Positions 1-10,369 of a stretch of DNA of 11,509 nt are shown here, in pieces. The stretch spans positions 1 through 11,509 of the forward strand of contig JAILDD010000181.1 in assembly GCA_024689605.1 (NCBI GenBank), written 5' to 3'. The position numbers were made by a program, and so were the translations under genes. Under the pieces are notes generated by a model. That model was given only the letters and a program-made list of their open reading frames with translations, made no database searches and was not told the origin of the DNA. Position 1 is the stretch's first letter. Every line of letters begins with the position of its first letter. The DNA is from Lachnospiraceae bacterium. GTDB lineage: Bacteria > Bacillota_A > Clostridia > Lachnospirales > Lachnospiraceae.

Positions 1-844
1 CACTTGATGTAATAAAGGTATTGCCTCCTATGACGGAGCCCTCACCGATCACGGTATCCCCGCCAAGTATGGATGCTCCTGCATATATCGTCACATTGTC
101 TTCGATAGTCGGATGACGCTTCTTGCCGGAAAGCTTCTGTCCGCCTCTTGTTGAAAGTGCACCGATGGTAACACCCTGATAGATTTTTACATTTTCTCCG
201 ATAACGGAAGTCTCGCCTATTACAATGCCCGTACCATGGTCAATGAAAAAATACTTGCCTATGGTTGCACCGGGATGAATGTCTATCCCTGTCTCTGAAT
301 GGGCAAATTCCGTCATAAGCCTGGGAATTACCGGCACACTTAACTGATACAGCTCATGTGCAAGTCTGTTGACAGTGATTGCCATGAGTCCGGGATATGC
401 AAGGATTATCTCCTCATAGCAGCATGCTGCCGGATCCCCGTCATATGCGGCCAGCAGGTCGGATTCCACATACTCCCTGATCTCAGGAAGCTTATCGAAA
501 AAGGCACAGCAAATACGATAGCTTTCCTTACGCCTTTCTTCCTCGGTCATCACACCCCTGAGCTTGCAGAAATCCAGTGCAAGAAAGATCTGCTTGTTCA
601 TGTGATAAAAAATATCTTCTACGGTAACCGCAAAGGTATTTCTGGGATTGTATATCTTAAAAGTACGATGCCTGAAATATCCCGGGAAAACTATCTTAAA
701 AAGATTTACAACAATTTCCCTTACTTCGCCTTTGTCAGGCTTATTGAATAGATCAATGACATCAATGTTCCTTCCCTTGTCGAAATCGGAAAGAACTTTT
801 TGTACTATGTTTTCTATTTCTTCTTCTCTTACGTAATCTGTCAT
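1..844 (-). CDS. Serine O-acetyltransferase, EpsC/SrpH type (3' end beyond window)
   Basis: Transfers acetyl from acetyl-CoA to L-serine, giving O-acetylserine, the acceptor used by CysK for cysteine synthesis. I translated this frame by hand: 281 codons from ATG at 844 to the window edge with no stop. An alpha-helical N-terminal half (about 1-180) includes AAYDGDPAA and ILAYPGLMAI. A left-handed beta-helix with hexapeptide repeats follows, starting at DIHPGATIG (catalytic-type His190) and HGTGIVIGET (203-212). The family is about 300 residues long, so only the C-terminal tail is missing; the CysK-binding end cannot be seen. It lies downstream of the encapsulin shell and cargo genes, as a SAT gene (srpH) also neighbours srpI in Synechococcus. 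No Shine-Dalgarno precedes the ATG (upstream bases are A/C-rich), which suggests a very short leader. An AT-rich palindrome sits immediately upstream. The family call is secure; the start is probable. Confidence 0.93.
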   Translation of the reverse strand, partial: MTDYVREEEIENIVQKVLSDFDKGRNIDVIDLFNKPDKGEVREIVVNLFKIVFPGYFRHRTFKIYNPRNTFAVTVEDIFYHMNKQIFLALDFCKLRGVMTEEERRKESYRICCAFFDKLPEIREYVESDLLAAYDGDPAACCYEEIILAYPGLMAITVNRLAHELYQLSVPVIPRLMTEFAHSETGIDIHPGATIGKYFFIDHGTGIVIGETSVIGENVKIYQGVTIGALSTRGGQKLSGKKRHPTIEDNVTIYAGASILGGDTVIGEGSVIGGNTFITSS

Positions 845-852
845 TTTTGTTG

Positions 853-873
853 TGTTATATATATAGTGTAACA
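853..873. promoter_or_regulatory. Palindrome TGTTA-N11-TAACA upstream of the serine acetyltransferase
   Basis: A 5-bp inverted repeat separated by 11 bp lies 9 bp upstream of the SAT start. Its spacing fits the general T-N11-A layout of LysR-type regulator sites, and its TATATATA core could serve as a -10 region. No convincing -35 is visible. Operator function is inference. Confidence 0.35.
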
Positions 874-885
874 GTCTGTAGTATC

Positions 886-984
886 TATAATTCCCCCACA
901 CCGATAGCTCACCTGACGGTGGGGTCAGTTCACTGAGTCTCACTTTACACCGTCAGGCGAGGCTATACGGTGTGGGGAGTTATA
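886..984 (-). repeat. Large imperfect inverted repeat / hairpin between desulfurase and SAT genes
   Basis: The arms 894-921 and 948-977 pair almost throughout. Counting from the base of the hairpin, the outer blocks are CCCCACACCG/CGGTGTGGGG and the inner blocks CCTGACGGTG/CACCGTCAGG, with two extra bases in one arm. A weaker extension (TATAA...TTATA) reaches 886 and 984. The 26-nt loop holds a small TCAGT/ACTGA stem. One A:C mismatch on the plus strand becomes a G:U pair in minus-strand RNA, which favours a role in the minus transcript. No U-tract follows, so this is not a standard terminator. It may be an mRNA-stabilising hairpin, a boundary element, or a small palindromic mobile repeat. 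Confidence 0.75.
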
Positions 985-1009
985 AGGTTGTAAAGTTATA
1001 AAGTTACTA
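978..1009. repeat. Degenerate 8-bp tandem repeat after the desulfurase stop
   Basis: Four consecutive 8-bp units read agttataa, ggttgtaa, agttataa and agttacta on the plus strand. They fill the space between the desulfurase stop (1022) and the large hairpin. No function is apparent. Confidence 0.5.
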
Positions 1010-1021
1010 AAGTTGAAATTT

Positions 1022-2638
1022 CTACGCAAAGGTTCTCAGTACCTTCACCAGTGAATCGATATCATCTGGCGAATTGTAGAGCGCAAGCGTCGGTCTGACG
1101 GAACCTTCGTAACCGAAATGCCTGAGCACGGGCTGTGCGCAGTGGTGTCCGGTCCTTACAGCGATGCCGTAGGCATCCAGCCTCTTGCCGACCTCCTCGT
1201 CAGAGTATCCGTCAAGCTTGAAAGAAAGAACGGAGGCCTTATTGAGGGCAGTTCCTATAAGGGTCAGTCCCGGAACCGTCTTCATTTCCTTCATTGCATA
1301 CTGCAGCAGCTCATGCTCCCACCTGTATACGCAGGGCATTCCTATTTCTGTCAGATACAAAAGCGCTGCGCCAAGTCCTACTGCATCTGCTATGCTTCCG
1401 GTACCCGCCTCGAATTTATTAGGTATGCCATTGTATATGGTACGCTCAAAGGTCACATCCGCTATCATGTTGCCGCCGCCGTGATAAGGCTCCGCAGCTT
1501 CAAGCAGCTCCTTCTTGCCGTATACCACACCGATGCCCGTAGGTGCGAACACCTTGTGTCCCGAGAATACGAAGAAGTCTGCATCCAGCGCGGAAACATT
1601 CACGGGTATATGTGCAATGGACTGTGCACCGTCTATGAGTATCCTTACGCCGTGCCTGTGGGCCACCGCTATAAGCTCCTCTATGGGCGTCACTGTACCC
1701 AGCACATTTGACACATGGGTCACTGCAACGAATTTCGTTCTCTTTGTAAAGAGCTTCTCATACTCTGACAGTATCAGCTGTCCGGTCTCGTCACAGGGGA
1801 TCACCTTGATGACTGCACCGGTCTTCTGTGCGATAAGCTGCCAGGGAACGATGTTGGCATGATGCTCAAGTATGGAAACGATTATCTCATCCCCGGGTGT
1901 AAGCTGAGGCTTAACATAAGCATTTGCCACAAGGTTGATTGCTTCGGTAGTTCCCCTTACGAAGATTATCTCTTCGGATGAAGGCGCACCTATGAAATCC
2001 CTTACGATATCTCTTGCATTCTCATATGCATCAGTAGACCTTGCCGCAAGTGAATGTGCTCCTCTGTGGACATTGGAATTTTCATGCTCATAGTAGTATG
2101 AGAGCCTGTCGATCACCTGTCTCGGTCTCTGTGTTGTTGCGCCGTTATCAAGCCATACAAGAGGATTTCCGTTTATCCGCTCCTTAAGTATCGGGAAGTC
2201 GTCCCTTATCTGAGCCAGAGTCTTGCTGCCTATGCGGATTGAGTCATTCCTTGAAGTTGCCTTTTCTGCACTTTCGCCCTGAGCAGCCACTCCGTCTCCG
2301 CCGATGGATGTGGGCGCGTCAACACGCCTGTCGTACTCCTCGGCCTGAGTCTTAGACTGAACCCTGGGTGAGTACGATACCGGCTTGGCAGAAGGATCAC
2401 CTATTCCGAAGGGATGCTCCCAGTCAAACTCATCCTTAACCGAAGGTGCGGGTACAGCTGCTGTCTGCTGCTGGGAAACACCTGCTGTCTCGGATGCACT
2501 TTCCGGGCTTATCCCCGGTGTCACCACGCCGGGCACCGGAAAGTCAGGATACATCTCATTTGCCAGGGCCGTCAGTTCTGCTGCGCTCGGAAGTCCCAAT
2601 GCGTGTTCTGTTACAGCATACTGATCAGTCGTAATCAT
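1022..2638 (-). CDS. Family 2A encapsulin cargo: SufS-like cysteine desulfurase with long N-terminal targeting extension
   Basis: PLP enzyme that removes sulfur from L-cysteine, giving alanine and an enzyme persulfide. The catalytic domain spans about residues 141-538. It shows WLDNGATTQRP, the histidine pair in EHHANIVPW, the PLP lysine in SGHK (Lys362) and the persulfide cysteine in RTGHHCAQP (Cys500), all typical of SufS/CsdA (about 400 residues). In front is a Pro/Ala/Ser-rich, probably disordered extension of about 140 residues. It has more conserved-looking islands near LGLPSAAEL and DWEHPFGIGDP. SufS proteins lack such an extension, whereas Family 2A encapsulin cargo desulfurases carry one for packaging. 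The shell gene immediately upstream settles the assignment. I chose ATG at 2638 (538 aa) because GAGGTAGG precedes it. The in-frame GTG at 2647 leaves no room for a ribosome site. The frame overlaps the shell stop by 14 bp, implying translational coupling. Confidence 0.93.
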   Translation of the reverse strand: MITTDQYAVTEHALGLPSAAELTALANEMYPDFPVPGVVTPGISPESASETAGVSQQQTAAVPAPSVKDEFDWEHPFGIGDPSAKPVSYSPRVQSKTQAEEYDRRVDAPTSIGGDGVAAQGESAEKATSRNDSIRIGSKTLAQIRDDFPILKERINGNPLVWLDNGATTQRPRQVIDRLSYYYEHENSNVHRGAHSLAARSTDAYENARDIVRDFIGAPSSEEIIFVRGTTEAINLVANAYVKPQLTPGDEIIVSILEHHANIVPWQLIAQKTGAVIKVIPCDETGQLILSEYEKLFTKRTKFVAVTHVSNVLGTVTPIEELIAVAHRHGVRILIDGAQSIAHIPVNVSALDADFFVFSGHKVFAPTGIGVVYGKKELLEAAEPYHGGGNMIADVTFERTIYNGIPNKFEAGTGSIADAVGLGAALLYLTEIGMPCVYRWEHELLQYAMKEMKTVPGLTLIGTALNKASVLSFKLDGYSDEEVGKRLDAYGIAVRTGHHCAQPVLRHFGYEGSVRPTLALYNSPDDIDSLVKVLRTFA

Positions 2639-3584
2639 AATATTCACCTACCTCTACATCTTCCAGAACTGCTATTGCATCATCAGCAAGTATTGCTGCA
2701 GAGCAATAAAGTGAAAGCAGATAGGATGCTACGCCCTTGTCATCTATTCCGCGGAAACGTACGGAAAGTCCTCTTGAATGTTCATTCTTAAGACCTGCCT
2801 GGAAGAGACCGATAACTCCGCGCTTAGCCTCTCCTGTACGGATCAGAAGGATATTGGTCTTGCCGCTCTGTGATGTAGGATTCTTGAGACCGTCAACAAG
2901 CAGCTTGTCTGTAGGTATGATGGGGATTCCTCTCCATGTAAGGAAAGTACCGCCTGCAATGTTTACGACAACAGGGGGAACGCCTCTCTTTGTGCACTCT
3001 CTCTCGAATGCAGCTATAGCCCTGGGATGAGCAAGGAAGAATGAGGGCTCCTTCCATACTTTTGTAATGAGCTCATCAAGATCATCAGGTGTGGGTGCTC
3101 CGTTCCTGGTCTGGATTCTCTGTGAATCAGCAATGTTCTTTAAGAGACCGTAGTCATCGTTATTGATGAGCTGGCTCTCCTGACGCTCACGAAGAGACTC
3201 AATTGCAAGGCCGAGCTGTTCCTGAACCTGATCGTAAGGTGCGCTGTAAACGTCCTCGATAGCAGTATTCACATTGATGATGGTTGAAATGGAATTAAGC
3301 CTGTACTCACGGGGCTCAGTCTCATACTCGACATAACCCTGAGGAATGATATCGCTCTTCTTGGTCTGGCTGCAGAGAACATCGAGGGGAGTCTCGCCTT
3401 CTACAACCTTGTTTACACGAAAGATGCCTGTCTCAAGTCCCTTAAACTCAAGGAACTTTGTGAGCCACTTTGGGGTAAGTGCTCCATACTGGGGTTTTGT
3501 CTTGGTAACATTGGCCAGATTATAAGCTGCTGCTGCTCCAAGAGCGTTGATGCCCTGTGCGTTTGTTTCTGTTTCTTTTGCCAT
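2625..3584 (-). CDS. srpI: Family 2A encapsulin shell protein (SrpI-like, HK97 fold)
   Basis: Predicted to self-assemble into an icosahedral protein nanocompartment around the desulfurase encoded next. Recognised as the SrpI/Family 2A shell type from its overall sequence and length (319 aa against a little over 300 in known members). Visible blocks are PKWLTKFLEFKGLETGIFRVN (split as PKWLTKFLEF and KGLETGIFRVN, 38-58), YETEPREYRLNSIST (87-101), ERQESQLINNDDYGLL (133-148), WRGIPIIPTDKL (217-228) and GLSVRFRGIDDKGVASYLLS (272-291), then an acidic tail. There is no cyclic-nucleotide-binding insertion, which fits 2A rather than 2B. ATG at 3584 is preceded by a perfect AAGGAGG nine bases away; a TTG 30 bp upstream gives a longer frame but has no such site. 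The cargo gene follows with overlap. Localisation: cytoplasmic compartment. Confidence 0.93.
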   Translation of the reverse strand: MAKETETNAQGINALGAAAAYNLANVTKTKPQYGALTPKWLTKFLEFKGLETGIFRVNKVVEGETPLDVLCSQTKKSDIIPQGYVEYETEPREYRLNSISTIINVNTAIEDVYSAPYDQVQEQLGLAIESLRERQESQLINNDDYGLLKNIADSQRIQTRNGAPTPDDLDELITKVWKEPSFFLAHPRAIAAFERECTKRGVPPVVVNIAGGTFLTWRGIPIIPTDKLLVDGLKNPTSQSGKTNILLIRTGEAKRGVIGLFQAGLKNEHSRGLSVRFRGIDDKGVASYLLSLYCSAAILADDAIAVLEDVEVGEYYDYD

Positions 3585-3626
3585 TTTGTCAGTCCTCCTT
3601 ATTAGTGTTGACAACTATGATGATCT

Positions 3627-7761: not shown

Positions 7762-8694
7762 TTACTCCGTAAACAGCGCTGTGGAATAATATCTGTCACC
7801 GCTGTCAGGAAGCAGCGCAACTATTGTCTTGCCCTTATTTTCAGGTCTCTTTGCCAGCTCGATAGCACCGTAAAGGGATGCGCCGGAGGAGATACCTACT
7901 GATATGCCTTCCTTCTTAGCAAGAAGCTTTGCTGTATCAAAAGCATTCTGATTAGGAGCCTTGAATACCTCATCATAAACCTTTGTATTGAGCACGTCAG
8001 GCACAAAACCTGCACCTATGCCCTGGATCTTATGTGCTCCGGCTCTGCCCTCGGAAAGAACCGGTGAATCTTCGGGCTCCAGTGCCACAACCTTGATGTT
8101 CGGATTCTTTTCTTTCAGATACTCACCTGTACCTGTTACTGTTCCGCCTGTACCTACGCCTGCGATAAAGATATCAACCTTTCCGTCGGTATCATTCCAG
8201 ATCTCCGGACCTGTTGTTGCTTTATGAACTGCAGGATTTGCCGGGTTAACAAACTGACCGGGTATGAAGCTATTGGGAATTTCCTTGGAAAGCTCCTCAG
8301 CCTTAGCGATAGCTCCCTTCATTCCCTTTGCACCCTCAGTGAGTACAAGTTCTGCGCCGTAAGCCTTCAGGATATTTCTTCTCTCCACGCTCATAGTCTC
8401 AGGCATGGTAAGGATTATACGGTATCCCTTTGCTGCTGCTATGGCTGCAAGACCGATACCGGTATTTCCGGATGTGGGCTCAATGATAACTGAACCTTCC
8501 TTTAAGAGTCCCTTCTCCTCAGCATCCTCTATCATTGCCTTTGCGATACGGTCCTTAACGCTTCCGGCAGGATTGAAATATTCGAGCTTAACCAGGATCG
8601 TTGCCTCAAGTCCCAGCTCTTTCTCAATATTTACCACCTCAACAAGGGGTGTATTTCCGATAAGTCCTAATGTTCCTTTGTAAATCTTAGACAT
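7762..8694 (-). CDS. cysK: Cysteine synthase A (O-acetylserine sulfhydrylase)
   Basis: PLP enzyme converting O-acetylserine and sulfide to L-cysteine and acetate, in the cytoplasm. At 310 aa it has the normal CysK length. Motifs run in order: IGNTPLV near the N-terminus, the PLP lysine in NPAGSVKDR (Lys47), substrate loop PTSGNTG (73-79), phosphate loop GVGTGGT (179-185), SVGISSGAS (265-273) and [15 protein letters not shown] at the C-terminus. The last motif is typical of CysK rather than CysM. It follows the O-acetylhomoserine sulfhydrylase gene by 30 bp, with AGAGG 8 bases before its ATG, and is closed by a strong terminator. It therefore probably shares the attenuator-controlled transcript. 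SAT, its partner in the cysteine synthase complex, is encoded at the other end of the window. Confidence 0.95.
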
Positions 8695-8724: not shown

Positions 8725-10005
8725 TTAGATTGCTGCGAAACCTTTCTCCAGATCAGCTATGATGTCGTCAATGTGCTCCGTACCTATGGAAAGCCTTATG
8801 GTGCTCTGCCTGATTCCCTGATCCAGAAGCTCTTCTTCAGAAAGCTGTGAGTGAGTTGTGGATGCCGGATGGATAACAAGGCTCTTTACATCTGCTACAT
8901 TTGCAAGCAGTGAGAAGATCTCCAGGCTGTCAATGAACTTCCATGCTTCTTCCTTTCCGCCCTTGATATCGAAAGTGAATATGGATGCACCGCCATTGGG
9001 GAAATACTTCTCATACAGCGCATGGTCGGGGTGGTCTGAAAGTGAAGGATGGTTTACCTTTTCAACCTTCGGATTCTTCGAGAGATATTCTACCACTTTC
9101 TTGGTATTCTCTGCGTGTCTTTCCAGTCTCAGAGACAGAGTCTCTACACCCTGCAAGAGGAGGAATGCATTGAAGGGTGAAATGCTTGCGCCCGTGTCTC
9201 TGAGAAGGATTGCCCTTATATAAGTAACAAATGCCGCCGGTCCTACAACGTCATAGAAGGATACACCGTGGTAGCTGGGATTGGGATCAGCTATTCCCTT
9301 GTACTTTCCGCTTGCCTTCCAGTCAAACTTTCCTGCCTCTACGATAACGCCGCCCAGCGTAGTGCCGTGTCCGCCGAGGAACTTTGTTGCGGAATGAACC
9401 ACGATGTCCGCACCGTGCTCGATAGGTCTGATAAGGTAAGGTGTTCCGAAAGTATTGTCTACTACAAGAGGAAGTCCGTGCCTGTGTGCTATCTCAGCTA
9501 TAGCATCAATATCGGGGATGTCACTGTTGGGATTTCCCAGCGTCTCCAGATAGATTGCTCTGGTGTTGTCCTTTATTGCACCCTCTACTTCCTGAAGGTT
9601 ATGTGCATCTACAAATGTTGTTTCTATATTGTACTGGGGAAGCGTATGCTCAAGAAGATTGAAACTTCCGCCGTAGATTGTCTTCTGTGCTACAATGTGT
9701 CCGCCGTTTGCTGCAAGTGCTTCTATCGTATATGTGATAGCTGCTGCTCCGCTTGCTACTGCAAGCGCTGCGCTTCCGCCTTCCAGTGCAGCCACTCTCT
9801 TTTCGAGTACATCCTGTGTGCTGTTTGTAAGTCTTCCGTAAATGTTTCCCGGATCTGCAAGGCCGAACCGGTCTGCCGCATGCTTGCTGTTATGAAAAAC
9901 ATATGATGTTGTCTGGTAAATAGGAACCGCTCTTGAATCCGTAGCGGGATCTGCCTGTTCCTGACCAACGTGTAACTGTAATGTTTCAAATCTATAATCG
10001 CTCAT
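8725..10005 (-). CDS. metY: O-acetylhomoserine sulfhydrylase (aminocarboxypropyltransferase)
   Basis: PLP enzyme that makes homocysteine from O-acetylhomoserine and sulfide; some members also act on O-acetylserine. The 426-aa protein looks canonical: ETLQLHVGQ start, PIYQTTSYVF (28-37), NIYGRLTNSTQ (54-64), ASGAAAI (84-90), YGGSFNLL (111-118), VVDNTFGTPYLIRP (181-194), the PLP lysine in HSATKFLGGHGT (Lys208) and LVIHPAST toward the C-terminus. ATG at 10005 has AAGGAG 7 bases upstream. The transcript leader is about 400 nt and holds a Cys/Met leader peptide and attenuator, with an upstream operator. It is followed by cysK after 30 bp. The family is certain; preference for acetylhomoserine over acetylserine is probable. 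The other MetY-like gene in the window is clearly divergent. Confidence 0.93.
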   Translation of the reverse strand: MSDYRFETLQLHVGQEQADPATDSRAVPIYQTTSYVFHNSKHAADRFGLADPGNIYGRLTNSTQDVLEKRVAALEGGSAALAVASGAAAITYTIEALAANGGHIVAQKTIYGGSFNLLEHTLPQYNIETTFVDAHNLQEVEGAIKDNTRAIYLETLGNPNSDIPDIDAIAEIAHRHGLPLVVDNTFGTPYLIRPIEHGADIVVHSATKFLGGHGTTLGGVIVEAGKFDWKASGKYKGIADPNPSYHGVSFYDVVGPAAFVTYIRAILLRDTGASISPFNAFLLLQGVETLSLRLERHAENTKKVVEYLSKNPKVEKVNHPSLSDHPDHALYEKYFPNGGASIFTFDIKGGKEEAWKFIDSLEIFSLLANVADVKSLVIHPASTTHSQLSEEELLDQGIRQSTIRLSIGTEHIDDIIADLEKGFAAI

Positions 10006-10137: not shown

Positions 10138-10172
10138 GCCCCGTTTTTTTCTTTCGATAAAAAAACCGGGGC
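10138..10172 (-). promoter_or_regulatory. Second hairpin competing with the attenuator terminator
   Basis: In the minus RNA, GCCCCG (3' arm of the terminator) can also pair with CGGGGC (10138-10143), extended by U7 pairing with A7 (10159-10165 with 10144-10150) across one bulge, loop 8 nt. This helix would consume the terminator's 3' arm and U-run, so the two cannot coexist. It can form only after polymerase has passed the terminator. It may stabilise the read-through RNA or hold it open. Confidence 0.55.
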
Positions 10173-10188
10173 TTCTCTAAGCTCCCGG
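10159..10188 (-). terminator. Attenuator terminator in the metY leader
   Basis: Minus-strand RNA forms CCGGG-A-GCTT, loop AGAG, AAGCCCCGG: nine base pairs with one bulged A, followed directly by U7. It lies 29 nt after the leader-peptide stop and about 154 nt before the metY start, so it would stop transcription before metY-cysK. Its 5' arm is shared with the antiterminator. Confidence 0.88.
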
Positions 10189-10283
10189 GCGGCTGGCACA
10201 TTTCATGATACCTGTTTCAACATCGTATCGTTTCCGGACATGCGGACTCACCGCTCATCCGGGCCATCTCATCCACCCGGGAG
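10182..10283 (-). promoter_or_regulatory. Antiterminator pairing of the Cys/Met attenuator
   Basis: CTCCCGGGTGG inside the leader-peptide gene (10273-10283, codons 20-24) can pair over 11 bp, one of them G:U, with CCGCCCGGGAG (10182-10192), which contains the 5' arm of the terminator. A competing protector stem, CCGGG (10276-10280) with CCCGG (10259-10263), would hide the first arm. A ribosome stalled at codons 13-16 (Cys-Met-Cys-Cys) would disrupt neither antiterminator arm, whereas one moving on would cover the first arm. Complementarity is seen; the mechanism is inferred. Confidence 0.75.
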
Positions 10284-10342
10284 TTAAACATTCGACAACA
10301 CATACAAGCCTTCCACTCCGTAAATATTGTGTTTGCCATCAT
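10217..10342 (-). CDS. Cys/Met-rich leader peptide of the metY–cysK attenuator
   Basis: A 41-codon frame too short for ordinary gene calling. It starts at ATG 10342 or the adjacent ATG 10339. A near-complete Shine-Dalgarno AAGGAGGTG ends just upstream, spaced best for 10339. The peptide has 5 Cys and 6 Met, including the cluster KACMCCRM (residues 11-18), and more Cys at 35 and 41; the final codon before the stop is Cys. It resembles no protein I know. The cluster, the overlapping antiterminator arm and a terminator 29 nt beyond the stop are the standard layout of amino-acid attenuation. Scarcity of charged tRNA-Cys (or tRNA-Met) should stall the ribosome and allow read-through into metY and cysK. 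This stretch also carries no S-box or T-box consensus. Confidence 0.8.
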   Translation of the reverse strand: MMANTIFTEWKACMCCRMFNSRVDEMARMSGESACPETIRC

Positions 10343-10369
10343 CCGCACCTCCTTCCTGTTATTTTGATC

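What the first reader, a model, noticed from the sequence alone, without database searches (positions are those of the whole stretch)
10159..10342. Cys/Met leader-peptide attenuator in front of metY–cysK
A 41-codon frame with a near-perfect ribosome site has the run Cys-Met-Cys-Cys at codons 13-16. Eleven bases starting at codon 20 pair with the sequence that also forms the 5' arm of a U7 terminator. The geometry fits ribosome stalling on Cys (or Met) codons leading to antitermination. Firmicutes usually control such genes with S-box or T-box RNAs; a cysteine attenuator of this classical form would be unusual for them.
Basis: partly seen in the sequence, partly recalled or inferred. Interest (0 to 1): 0.9.

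Follow-up and report, generated by a model that had tools for sequence, protein, structure and literature searches.

The report
Cysteine-codon leader attenuator of sulfur genes
A short cysteine-rich reading frame in front of sulfur amino-acid genes appears to let a ribosome that runs short of cysteine switch a transcription terminator off, and relatives of the same switch sit in front of sulfur genes in other gut and rumen bacteria.

Summary
On the minus strand a 41-aa leader ORF (ATG 10342 or 10339) has a strong ribosome site, Cys-Met-Cys-Cys at codons 13-16, an 11-bp antiterminator (10283-10273 with 10192-10182) and a U7 terminator sharing the 3' arm. It belongs to a family: 70 more distinct leaders with this core were found (28 of 80 metY loci, 42 other Lachnospiraceae places) before metY, cysK, amino-acid ABC transporters, a sulfopropanediol dehydratase and nitrogenase-like genes. 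Coding is clear: ribosome site plus start in frame in 66 of 71, against 3 and 3 out of frame; Cys fills 173 of 426 codons before the arm. The antiterminator covaries (7 of 10 pairs). Function is inferred; nothing was measured. Cysteine-leader attenuators are known in Proteobacteria and mycobacteria, so this is a new variant, in Firmicutes. No Rfam, Pfam or NCBIfam model matched, and the open-licence papers searched did not describe it.

The parts
10348..10354 (-). Shine-Dalgarno AAGGAGG of the leader ORF
   Evidence: sequence; in-frame SD+start in 66 of 71 leaders
10217..10342 (-). leader ORF, 41 aa (start ATG 10342 or 10339)
   Evidence: frame test; 105 database relatives at E <= 0.1
10295..10306 (-). 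regulatory codons TGT ATG TGT TGT (Cys-Met-Cys-Cys, codons 13-16)
   Evidence: Cys in 173 of 426 codons at these places in 71 leaders
10289..10294 (-). near-fixed CGA-ATG directly after the Cys codons
   Evidence: CGA in 69 of 71 leaders, 0 of 151 Arg codons in ten window CDSs
10273..10283 (-). arm A: 5' strand of the antiterminator, CTCCCGGGTGG
10263..10267 (-). arm B (ATGGC), 5' strand of the second antiterminator helix
   Evidence: 5 of 5 pairs with two-sided changes in 63 leaders, 85.9% of cells paired
10194..10197 (-). arm B' (GCCA), 3' strand of the second antiterminator helix
10182..10192 (-). arm C: 3' strand of the antiterminator, overlapping the 5' arm of the terminator
10166..10188 (-). 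terminator hairpin CCGGGAGCTT-AGAG-AAGCCCCGG (arm D is its 3' side)
   Evidence: with arms A and B masked C:D >0.5 in 62 of 67 leaders (window 0.60)
10159..10165 (-). U7 tract of the terminator
   Evidence: four T columns of the tract at 90% or more in alignment A1
10341..10348 (-). S: ribosome-site spacer and start, GTGCGGAT
   Evidence: covarying partner of S'
10240..10247 (-). S': GTCCGCAT, complementary to S
10217..10225 (-). ORF end CGA TGT TGA: a second CGA-Cys pair before the stop
   Evidence: 14 of 71 leaders end in CGA-TGT-stop
8725..10005 (-). metY, O-acetylhomoserine/O-acetylserine sulfhydrylase (first regulated gene)
   Evidence: TIGR01326 2e-188, over cut-off
7762..8694 (-). cysK, cysteine synthase A (second gene)
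   Evidence: TIGR01139 3.5e-136, over cut-off

Best explanation
A ribosome-mediated transcription attenuator that senses charged tRNA-Cys (perhaps also tRNA-Met). Shown by sequence and comparison: a leader ORF under coding constraint with Cys codons ending directly before a CGA codon; an antiterminator A:C (plus B:B') starting 11 nt after the first base of CGA; a terminator C:D that shares arm C; conservation of these in front of sulfur genes. Inferred: when cysteine is scarce the first ribosome stalls on the Cys codons, leaves arm A free, A:C forms, and RNA polymerase reads on into metY-cysK. When cysteine is sufficient the ribosome runs over A and B, C pairs with D, and transcription stops at the U7. 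Inferred, less sure: the S:S' helix closes the leader's ribosome site when no ribosome is there and, because it crosses A:C, holds an untranslated leader towards termination and limits repeat loading.
For: Frame: SD plus start in frame 0 in 66 of 71 leaders, 3 of 71 in each other frame; Cys in 173 of 426 codons in frame 0 vs 79 and 7; last Cys codon directly before CGA in 63 of 71, and Cys in only 9 of 426 codons from CGA to five codons on. Pairing: A:C 684 of 710 cells standard, re-paired mean 657.2, maximum 666 in 2000; on the 31 distinct arm pairs 284 of 310 vs 267.7, maximum 278; RNAalifold predicts only A:C, 7 of 10 pairs with two-sided changes; three-helix count 87.0% paired vs 80.7% shuffled (0 of 500) and 30-49% when slid. 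Energetics: A:C >0.5 in 67 of 67 before the 3' terminator arm exists; C:D >0.5 in 62 of 67 when A and B are masked. Footprint: window against L001, the ribosome site and the stretch from the Cys codons to the U tract are nearly identical while codons 2-11 and the flanks have drifted. Regulon. S:S': z 7.4 for one region pair, -1.1 to 1.8 in 15 others.
Against: No expression, term-seq or ribosome data. 6 of 71 leaders have a single Cys codon among the six before CGA. Met codons are enriched too (99 of 426), so the sensed amino acid is not settled. Eight of 71 leaders were dropped from the alignment for unusual spacing or no clear arm C; by my scan, which is permissive, two (L113, L154) show no terminator, and five of 67 fail the C:D test. 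52 of 80 metY loci lack the motif. Relatedness of leaders inflates shuffle statistics. Without the ribosome site the full leader folds as A:C in 59 of 67, with it in 33 of 58, so the untranslated state is unclear. S:S' crosses A:C and their coexistence was not modelled.
Confidence: 0.9

Rival explanations
1. The same attenuator, but the signal is Met-tRNA or both Cys and Met: stalls on the ATG codons mixed with the Cys codons give readthrough.
For: ATG is 99 of 426 codons in the six codons before CGA and 42 of 71 at position -3; targets include metY and transporters with a MetI-family permease over NCBIfam's cut-off and MetN/MetQ-like parts below it.
Against: Cys is more frequent (173 of 426) and the codon next to CGA is Cys in 63 of 71, Met in 2 of 71; cysK alone (L114) and a sulfonate C-S lyase (L130) are also targets.
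Confidence: 0.3
2. A ligand-binding riboswitch whose conserved RNA happens to contain an ORF.
For: Strong nucleotide conservation (CGAATG, CTCCCGGGCA, TGCCCGGGAG) and several covarying helices.
Against: Frame-specific start sites and Cys codons; no compact conserved aptamer, the middle of the alignment varies in length and sequence; no Rfam match on the leader in the window up to E 5.
Confidence: 0.04
3. A nascent-chain arrest peptide: the CCRM peptide itself stalls the ribosome with a small-molecule co-signal such as cysteine.
For: The CCRM core is strongly kept and the start-to-core distance is 13-16 codons in 56 of 66; a rare CGA is fixed at one place.
Against: Other upstream residues vary freely (30 peptides of my choice out of 71: only M1, R16, M17, S20 invariant); Cys is replaced at single places by Trp, Tyr or Met; S, R, A are explained at least in part by the nucleotides of arm A.
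Confidence: 0.06

Closest known systems
uORFC-8-2 motif before cysS, Rhodobacterales (PMC8632094, passages read)
   Same: uORF with tandem Cys codons, usually at codons 14-15; predicted ribosome-mediated attenuation with an intrinsic terminator
   Different: Alphaproteobacteria, only cysS, UGC preferred, Cys codons inside the first stem; here Firmicutes, many sulfur operons, UGU, antiterminator downstream of the Cys codons, S:S' helix and CGA
Polycysteine leaderless sORFs of mycobacteria (Canestrari 2020; only its reference entry and citing text seen; paper not held) and actinobacterial cys leaders (PMC1262725, passages)
   Same: short ORF with Cys codons before sulfur genes
   Different: there leaderless, Cys runs near the stop codon, no conserved terminator hairpin, cited as translation attenuation; here SD-led with an intrinsic terminator
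trp/his/leu-type attenuators (recalled)
   Same: stall on regulatory codons selects antiterminator over terminator
   Different: the regulatory codons lie just upstream of the antiterminator arm, not in a 1:2 hairpin; a protector role may be taken by a helix at the ribosome site
His leader peptide of hisS/hisZ in Bacilli (PMC2965389, passages)
   Same: leader-peptide attenuation in Firmicutes
   Different: other amino acid and other genes
S-box (RF00162) and T-box (RF00230)
   Same: terminator/antiterminator control of Met and Cys genes in Firmicutes
   Different: no match on these leaders; both classes occur elsewhere in such genomes

Membership tests
ribosome-mediated transcription attenuator (leader-peptide class) | translatable leader ORF with its own ribosome site | tested here: met
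   66 of 71 in frame vs 3 and 3; translation itself not measured
ribosome-mediated transcription attenuator (leader-peptide class) | regulatory codons for the end product of the controlled genes | tested here: met
   Cys 173 of 426 codons; downstream metY, cysK, amino-acid transport
ribosome-mediated transcription attenuator (leader-peptide class) | intrinsic terminator before the first gene | tested here: met
   69 of 71 by a permissive scan; C:D >0.5 in 62 of 67 with A and B masked
ribosome-mediated transcription attenuator (leader-peptide class) | mutually exclusive antiterminator, conserved by covariation | tested here: met
ribosome-mediated transcription attenuator (leader-peptide class) | protector (1:2) hairpin giving termination without translation | tested here: inconclusive
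   no local hairpin of arm A; S:S' could serve, predicted before arm C exists in 37 of 58 leaders, but A:C still wins at full length in 33 of 58
ribosome-mediated transcription attenuator (leader-peptide class) | readthrough rises when the amino acid is limiting | not testable with these tools
   needs reporters or term-seq
uORFC-8-2 | Cys codons lie within the first conserved stem, upstream of cysS | tested here: not met
   the one consensus stem, A:C, begins 11 nt after the first base of CGA; genes are metY, cysK, transporters
mycobacterial leaderless polycysteine sORF | leaderless start, Cys run near the stop | tested here: not met
   SD in 66 of 71; in the window 25 codons lie between the Cys run and the stop
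T-box / S-box | covariance-model match in the leader | tested here: not met
   window none; no SAM or T-box match in 71 loci scanned; a T-box lies 3.4 kb behind the L143 leader, before a later gene

The most novel reading that the evidence does not exclude
A distinct attenuator class of Lachnospiraceae that reads two ribosome positions at once. A ribosome stalled on Cys codons frees arm A, and a ribosome on the leader's own start site keeps the crossing helix S:S' open; the near-constant distance of about 15 codons between start and Cys run is just enough for a second ribosome to sit behind the stalled one. A fixed rare CGA codon acts as a built-in brake or timer. One such module coordinates cysteine synthesis, methionine-type uptake and sulfonate or thioether sulfur scavenging across unlinked operons.
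Probability: 0.35. Interest if true: 0.82.

Novelty: new variant of a known kind. Interest (0 to 1): 0.72.

Why it matters
If true, cysteine control in part of the gut and rumen Lachnospiraceae runs through translation of a small ORF, although the same genomes use S-box and T-box RNAs for other genes. It gives an annotation handle: a gene behind this module is a candidate sulfur gene, as the sulfopropanediol dehydratase and nitrogenase-like cases suggest. It also offers a compact natural system in which the role of a near-invariant rare codon, and of a second ribosome waiting at the leader's start site, can be tested directly.

Tried and rejected
Rejected: (a) Riboswitch or T-box on the leader: no match. 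(b) A trp-type local hairpin of arm A with the following codons: probability at most 0.01 in 67 leaders. (c) A pairing partner for CGAATG: CAUUUG before arm C looked possible by eye, but it changes (CATATG in L039) while CGAATG does not, so I dropped it. (d) An extra U7/A7 hairpin just behind the terminator in the window: absent from L001, so taken as chance. (e) Pattern hits L119, L153, L156, L157: no peptide motif, dropped. (f) A first pattern with a wrongly set gap matched 1 of 32 genomes and was replaced. (g) A single peptide as database query found nothing; the alignment of 30 peptides found 105 relatives at E <= 0.1, none with a precomputed Pfam domain, two named, both 'hypothetical protein'. 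(h) In some searches I meant 14 genomes with and 12 without the leader; two handles (G154, G155) were mistaken, so it was 12 with and 14 without one by my searches (three of the 14, G004, G031 and G032, were judged by their metY locus only). (i) My first reading that an untranslated leader is antiterminated by default left out the ribosome site; with it included the prediction is divided. (j) L002 has a start only 4 codons before CGA by my start finder; probably a wrong start.

Papers: searches gave listings, one search gave none; no title or abstract in them describes this motif in Lachnospiraceae. Passages were read of PMC1262725, PMC2965389, PMC8632094 and PMC13236596. The library is open-licence PMC only; subscription papers and preprints were not searched.

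Full report
The window and the finding. The window (no whole genome is held for it) carries on the minus strand a sulfur gene cluster: a LysR regulator, the leader, metY, cysK, a GDSL hydrolase, a second Cys/Met-metabolism PLP enzyme, JAB, a ThiF/rhodanese protein with a weak ThiS match, a type 2A encapsulin, a class-V aminotransferase (cysteine desulfurase by my reading) and cysE (cysE is named by me from its sequence and was not searched). The nearest relative of its MetY among the 80 loci (98%) is Lachnospiraceae bacterium AB2028, L001. The described leader is there, base for base.

Coordinates. Leader ribosome site 10354-10348; start ATG 10342 or 10339; Cys-Met-Cys-Cys 10306-10295; CGA-ATG 10294-10289; arm A 10283-10273; arm B 10267-10263; S' 10247-10240; ORF end 10217; arm B' 10197-10194; arm C 10192-10182; terminator 10188-10166; U7 10165-10159; metY start 10005. 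S is 10348-10341.

Chance in the window alone. An 11-bp helix of that span occurred in 3 of 300 dinucleotide shuffles; fold energy z is -3.3. This alone would not carry the claim.

Relatives by gene. In 28 of 80 the 600 nt upstream hold a short frame with the same core, found by a peptide pattern that did not look at the downstream arm. Nine further loci, seven of them labelled Treponema, hold a different conserved peptide. I did not explain the rest.

Relatives by motif. The pattern TGKCGAATGN5CTCCCGGGC with up to two mismatches matched in 78 of 397 genomes of the family of L001's genome; the reversed control matched in 21 by my count of the table. I fetched 46 stretches, chosen by eye as likely plus a few doubtful ones, 47 places. 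Four were chance hits and one duplicated L032, leaving 42 new leaders. By my count, 38 of 397 genomes hold at least one verified leader; the remaining places were not fetched, so some may be real. A stricter pattern (one mismatch) matched in 8 of 291 Clostridia genomes, 10 places, two of them in L001's genome, with no control match; the new places were not examined further.

Coding. Over 71 distinct leaders a ribosome site plus start lies in frame 0 in 66, in the other frames in 3 and 3. Cys codons fill 173 of 426 codons just before CGA in frame 0, against 79 and 7 out of frame. Start to CGA is 13-16 codons in 56 of 66. TGT makes up 152 of the 173 (sum over the classes), although the window's genes use TGC 26 times and TGT 6 times. 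The last Cys codon is the codon before CGA in 63 of 71, and Cys is rare (9 of 426) from CGA to five codons on. With the recalled leading edge of a ribosome this is the last codon at which a stall leaves arm A uncovered. Six leaders have a single Cys codon among the six: L028, L038, L075, L076, L134, L150.

Antiterminator and terminator. Arm C was chosen by likeness to a consensus (with a bonus for a following terminator), not by fit to its own arm A. It pairs with its own arm A in 684 of 710 cells; re-pairing arms among leaders gives 657.2 +/- 2.2, maximum 666 of 2000; over the 31 distinct arm pairs 284 of 310 against 267.7 +/- 2.5, maximum 278. Examples: GGAC with GTCC, CCAGG with CCTGG, CTTCC with GGAAG. 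On the alignment of 63 leaders (8 of 71 dropped for spacing or no clear arm C: L043, L058, L113, L115, L146, L150, L152, L154) RNAalifold predicts only A:C, 7 of 10 pairs with two-sided changes. Adding B:B' and an inner stem gives 18 of 21 pairs with two-sided changes, 87.0% paired against 80.7% shuffled (0 of 500) and 30-49% slid; the inner stem itself is weaker, 65-71% paired. I wrote that structure from this alignment, which favours it. Folding gives A:C above 0.5 in 67 of 67 before arm D exists and C:D above 0.5 in 62 of 67 when A and B are masked; four leaders were left out.

Ribosome-site helix. The spacer between SD and start pairs with the stretch 40-64 nt after CGA better than with other leaders' stretches: 14.09 against 11.63 +/- 0.33, z 7.4, n = 58; fifteen other combinations of regions give z between -1.1 and 1.8. 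Sequences differ widely, for instance GAGGCGCA:TGCGCCTC, GTGCGGAT:GTCCGCAT (window) and CATGACAA:TTGTCATG; some leaders show only 4-5 bp. Relatedness of leaders may add to this z. The helix crosses A:C. Before arm C exists it is predicted above 0.5 in 37 of 58 untranslated leaders; at full length it stays above 0.5 in 17, A:C is above 0.5 in 33 and C:D in 23 (in the window S:S' 1.00 before arm C, A:C 0.99 at full length). Its role is inferred.

CGA. CGA is the Arg codon in 69 of 71 leaders. The first 29 were found with a pattern that allowed any Arg codon and all 29 have CGA; the other 42 were found with CGAATG in the pattern (mismatches allowed) and so are biased. In ten window CDSs CGA is 0 of 151 Arg codons, in 28 metY genes 4 of 379. 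In 14 of 71 leaders, the window among them, the ORF also ends in CGA-TGT-stop. I have no partner and no proven reason for CGA.

Footprint. Window against L001: the ribosome site and the stretch from the Cys codons to the U tract are nearly identical, while codons 2-11, much of the flank before and the stretch between terminator and metY have drifted.

Regulon. Of the 42 new leaders, 17 precede metY or a metY-like gene (L126 only 40% identical), 15 amino-acid-type ABC transporter genes, 3 cysK or metB-like plus cysK, and 7 others (grouped by me). Families were tested on examples only: a fused family-3 solute-binding plus NlpA protein, an ATPase, MetI (over NCBIfam's cut-off; the MetN and MetQ models match below theirs) and permeases (L155, L114), nitrogenase-like proteins (L115), (2S)-3-sulfopropanediol dehydratase (L130, NF048011, 1397.7 bits, cut-off 1000), a protein with a GST C-terminal domain (L112), a cyclase (L141), PALP plus LanC-like (L152) and a sulfate permease further down (L118). 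AB2028's genome holds a second copy before a transporter (L127).

Other controls. No S-box or T-box was found in the window or in 71 loci scanned (16, 18, 17 and 20). L052-L080 and most later loci were not scanned; one search shows a T-box 3.4 kb behind the L143 leader, before a later gene. Such genomes hold both classes elsewhere: SAM in 23 of 26 (10 of 12 with the leader, 13 of 14 without), T-box over cut-off in 25 of 26. So the leader does not replace these classes genome-wide.

What is known. Cys uORFs: uORFC-8-2 before cysS in Rhodobacterales (PMC8632094, passages); actinobacterial cys leaders without conserved terminators (PMC1262725, passages); mycobacterial polycysteine sORFs (Canestrari 2020, seen only as cited in PMC13236596). 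Leader peptides in Firmicutes: His, Bacilli (PMC2965389, passages). The present module shares the principle and differs in phylum, genes, layout and added elements. The window's peptide matches no Pfam or NCBIfam model up to E 1; of 105 relatives in protein databases two are named, both 'hypothetical protein'.

Verdict. A real, conserved, Cys-codon transcription attenuator by sequence; function inferred with high confidence, sensor identity with moderate confidence, role of S:S' and CGA open.

Noticed in passing
L008, L027, L045, L067, L072, L073, L074, L077, L078 (upstream of metY): Nine metY loci (seven labelled Treponema) carry a different conserved leader peptide with a core like NFRNGRM, in most followed by Cys codons. 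In several the ribosome site GGAGGCGCA is complementary to TGCGCC at the RM codons, and in L045/L067 both sides change (GGCACA, TGTGCC).
   Followed up: partly
window 1-3614: cysE (by my reading), a class-V aminotransferase/cysteine desulfurase with a long N-terminal extension and a type 2A encapsulin (PF19307) lie together in the same sulfur cluster.
   Followed up: no
L130:799-3261: A copy of the leader stands before a (2S)-3-sulfopropanediol dehydratase, suggesting cysteine-controlled sulfonate use.
   Followed up: partly
L115:605-4600: A divergent copy, without a clear arm C, stands before a LysR gene and nitrogenase-like genes (PF00148), perhaps a thioether sulfur-scavenging reductase.
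   Followed up: partly
L155:4239-5942: A 568-aa fusion of a family-3 solute-binding protein with an NlpA lipoprotein stands behind a leader copy.
   Followed up: partly
window 10225-10217; 14 of 71 leaders: The leader ORF ends in CGA-TGT-stop in 14 of 71 leaders, so a second rare CGA and a Cys codon sit at the stop; no role found.
   Followed up: partly
L001:3308-3475 and 7812-7969; L041:178-344: TwoAYGGAY RNAs (RF01731) lie in the loci around metY in relatives; the window shows no match up to E 5.
   Followed up: no
window 10144-10176: A hairpin pairing the U7 with a downstream A7 follows the terminator in the window but not in L001.
   Followed up: yes
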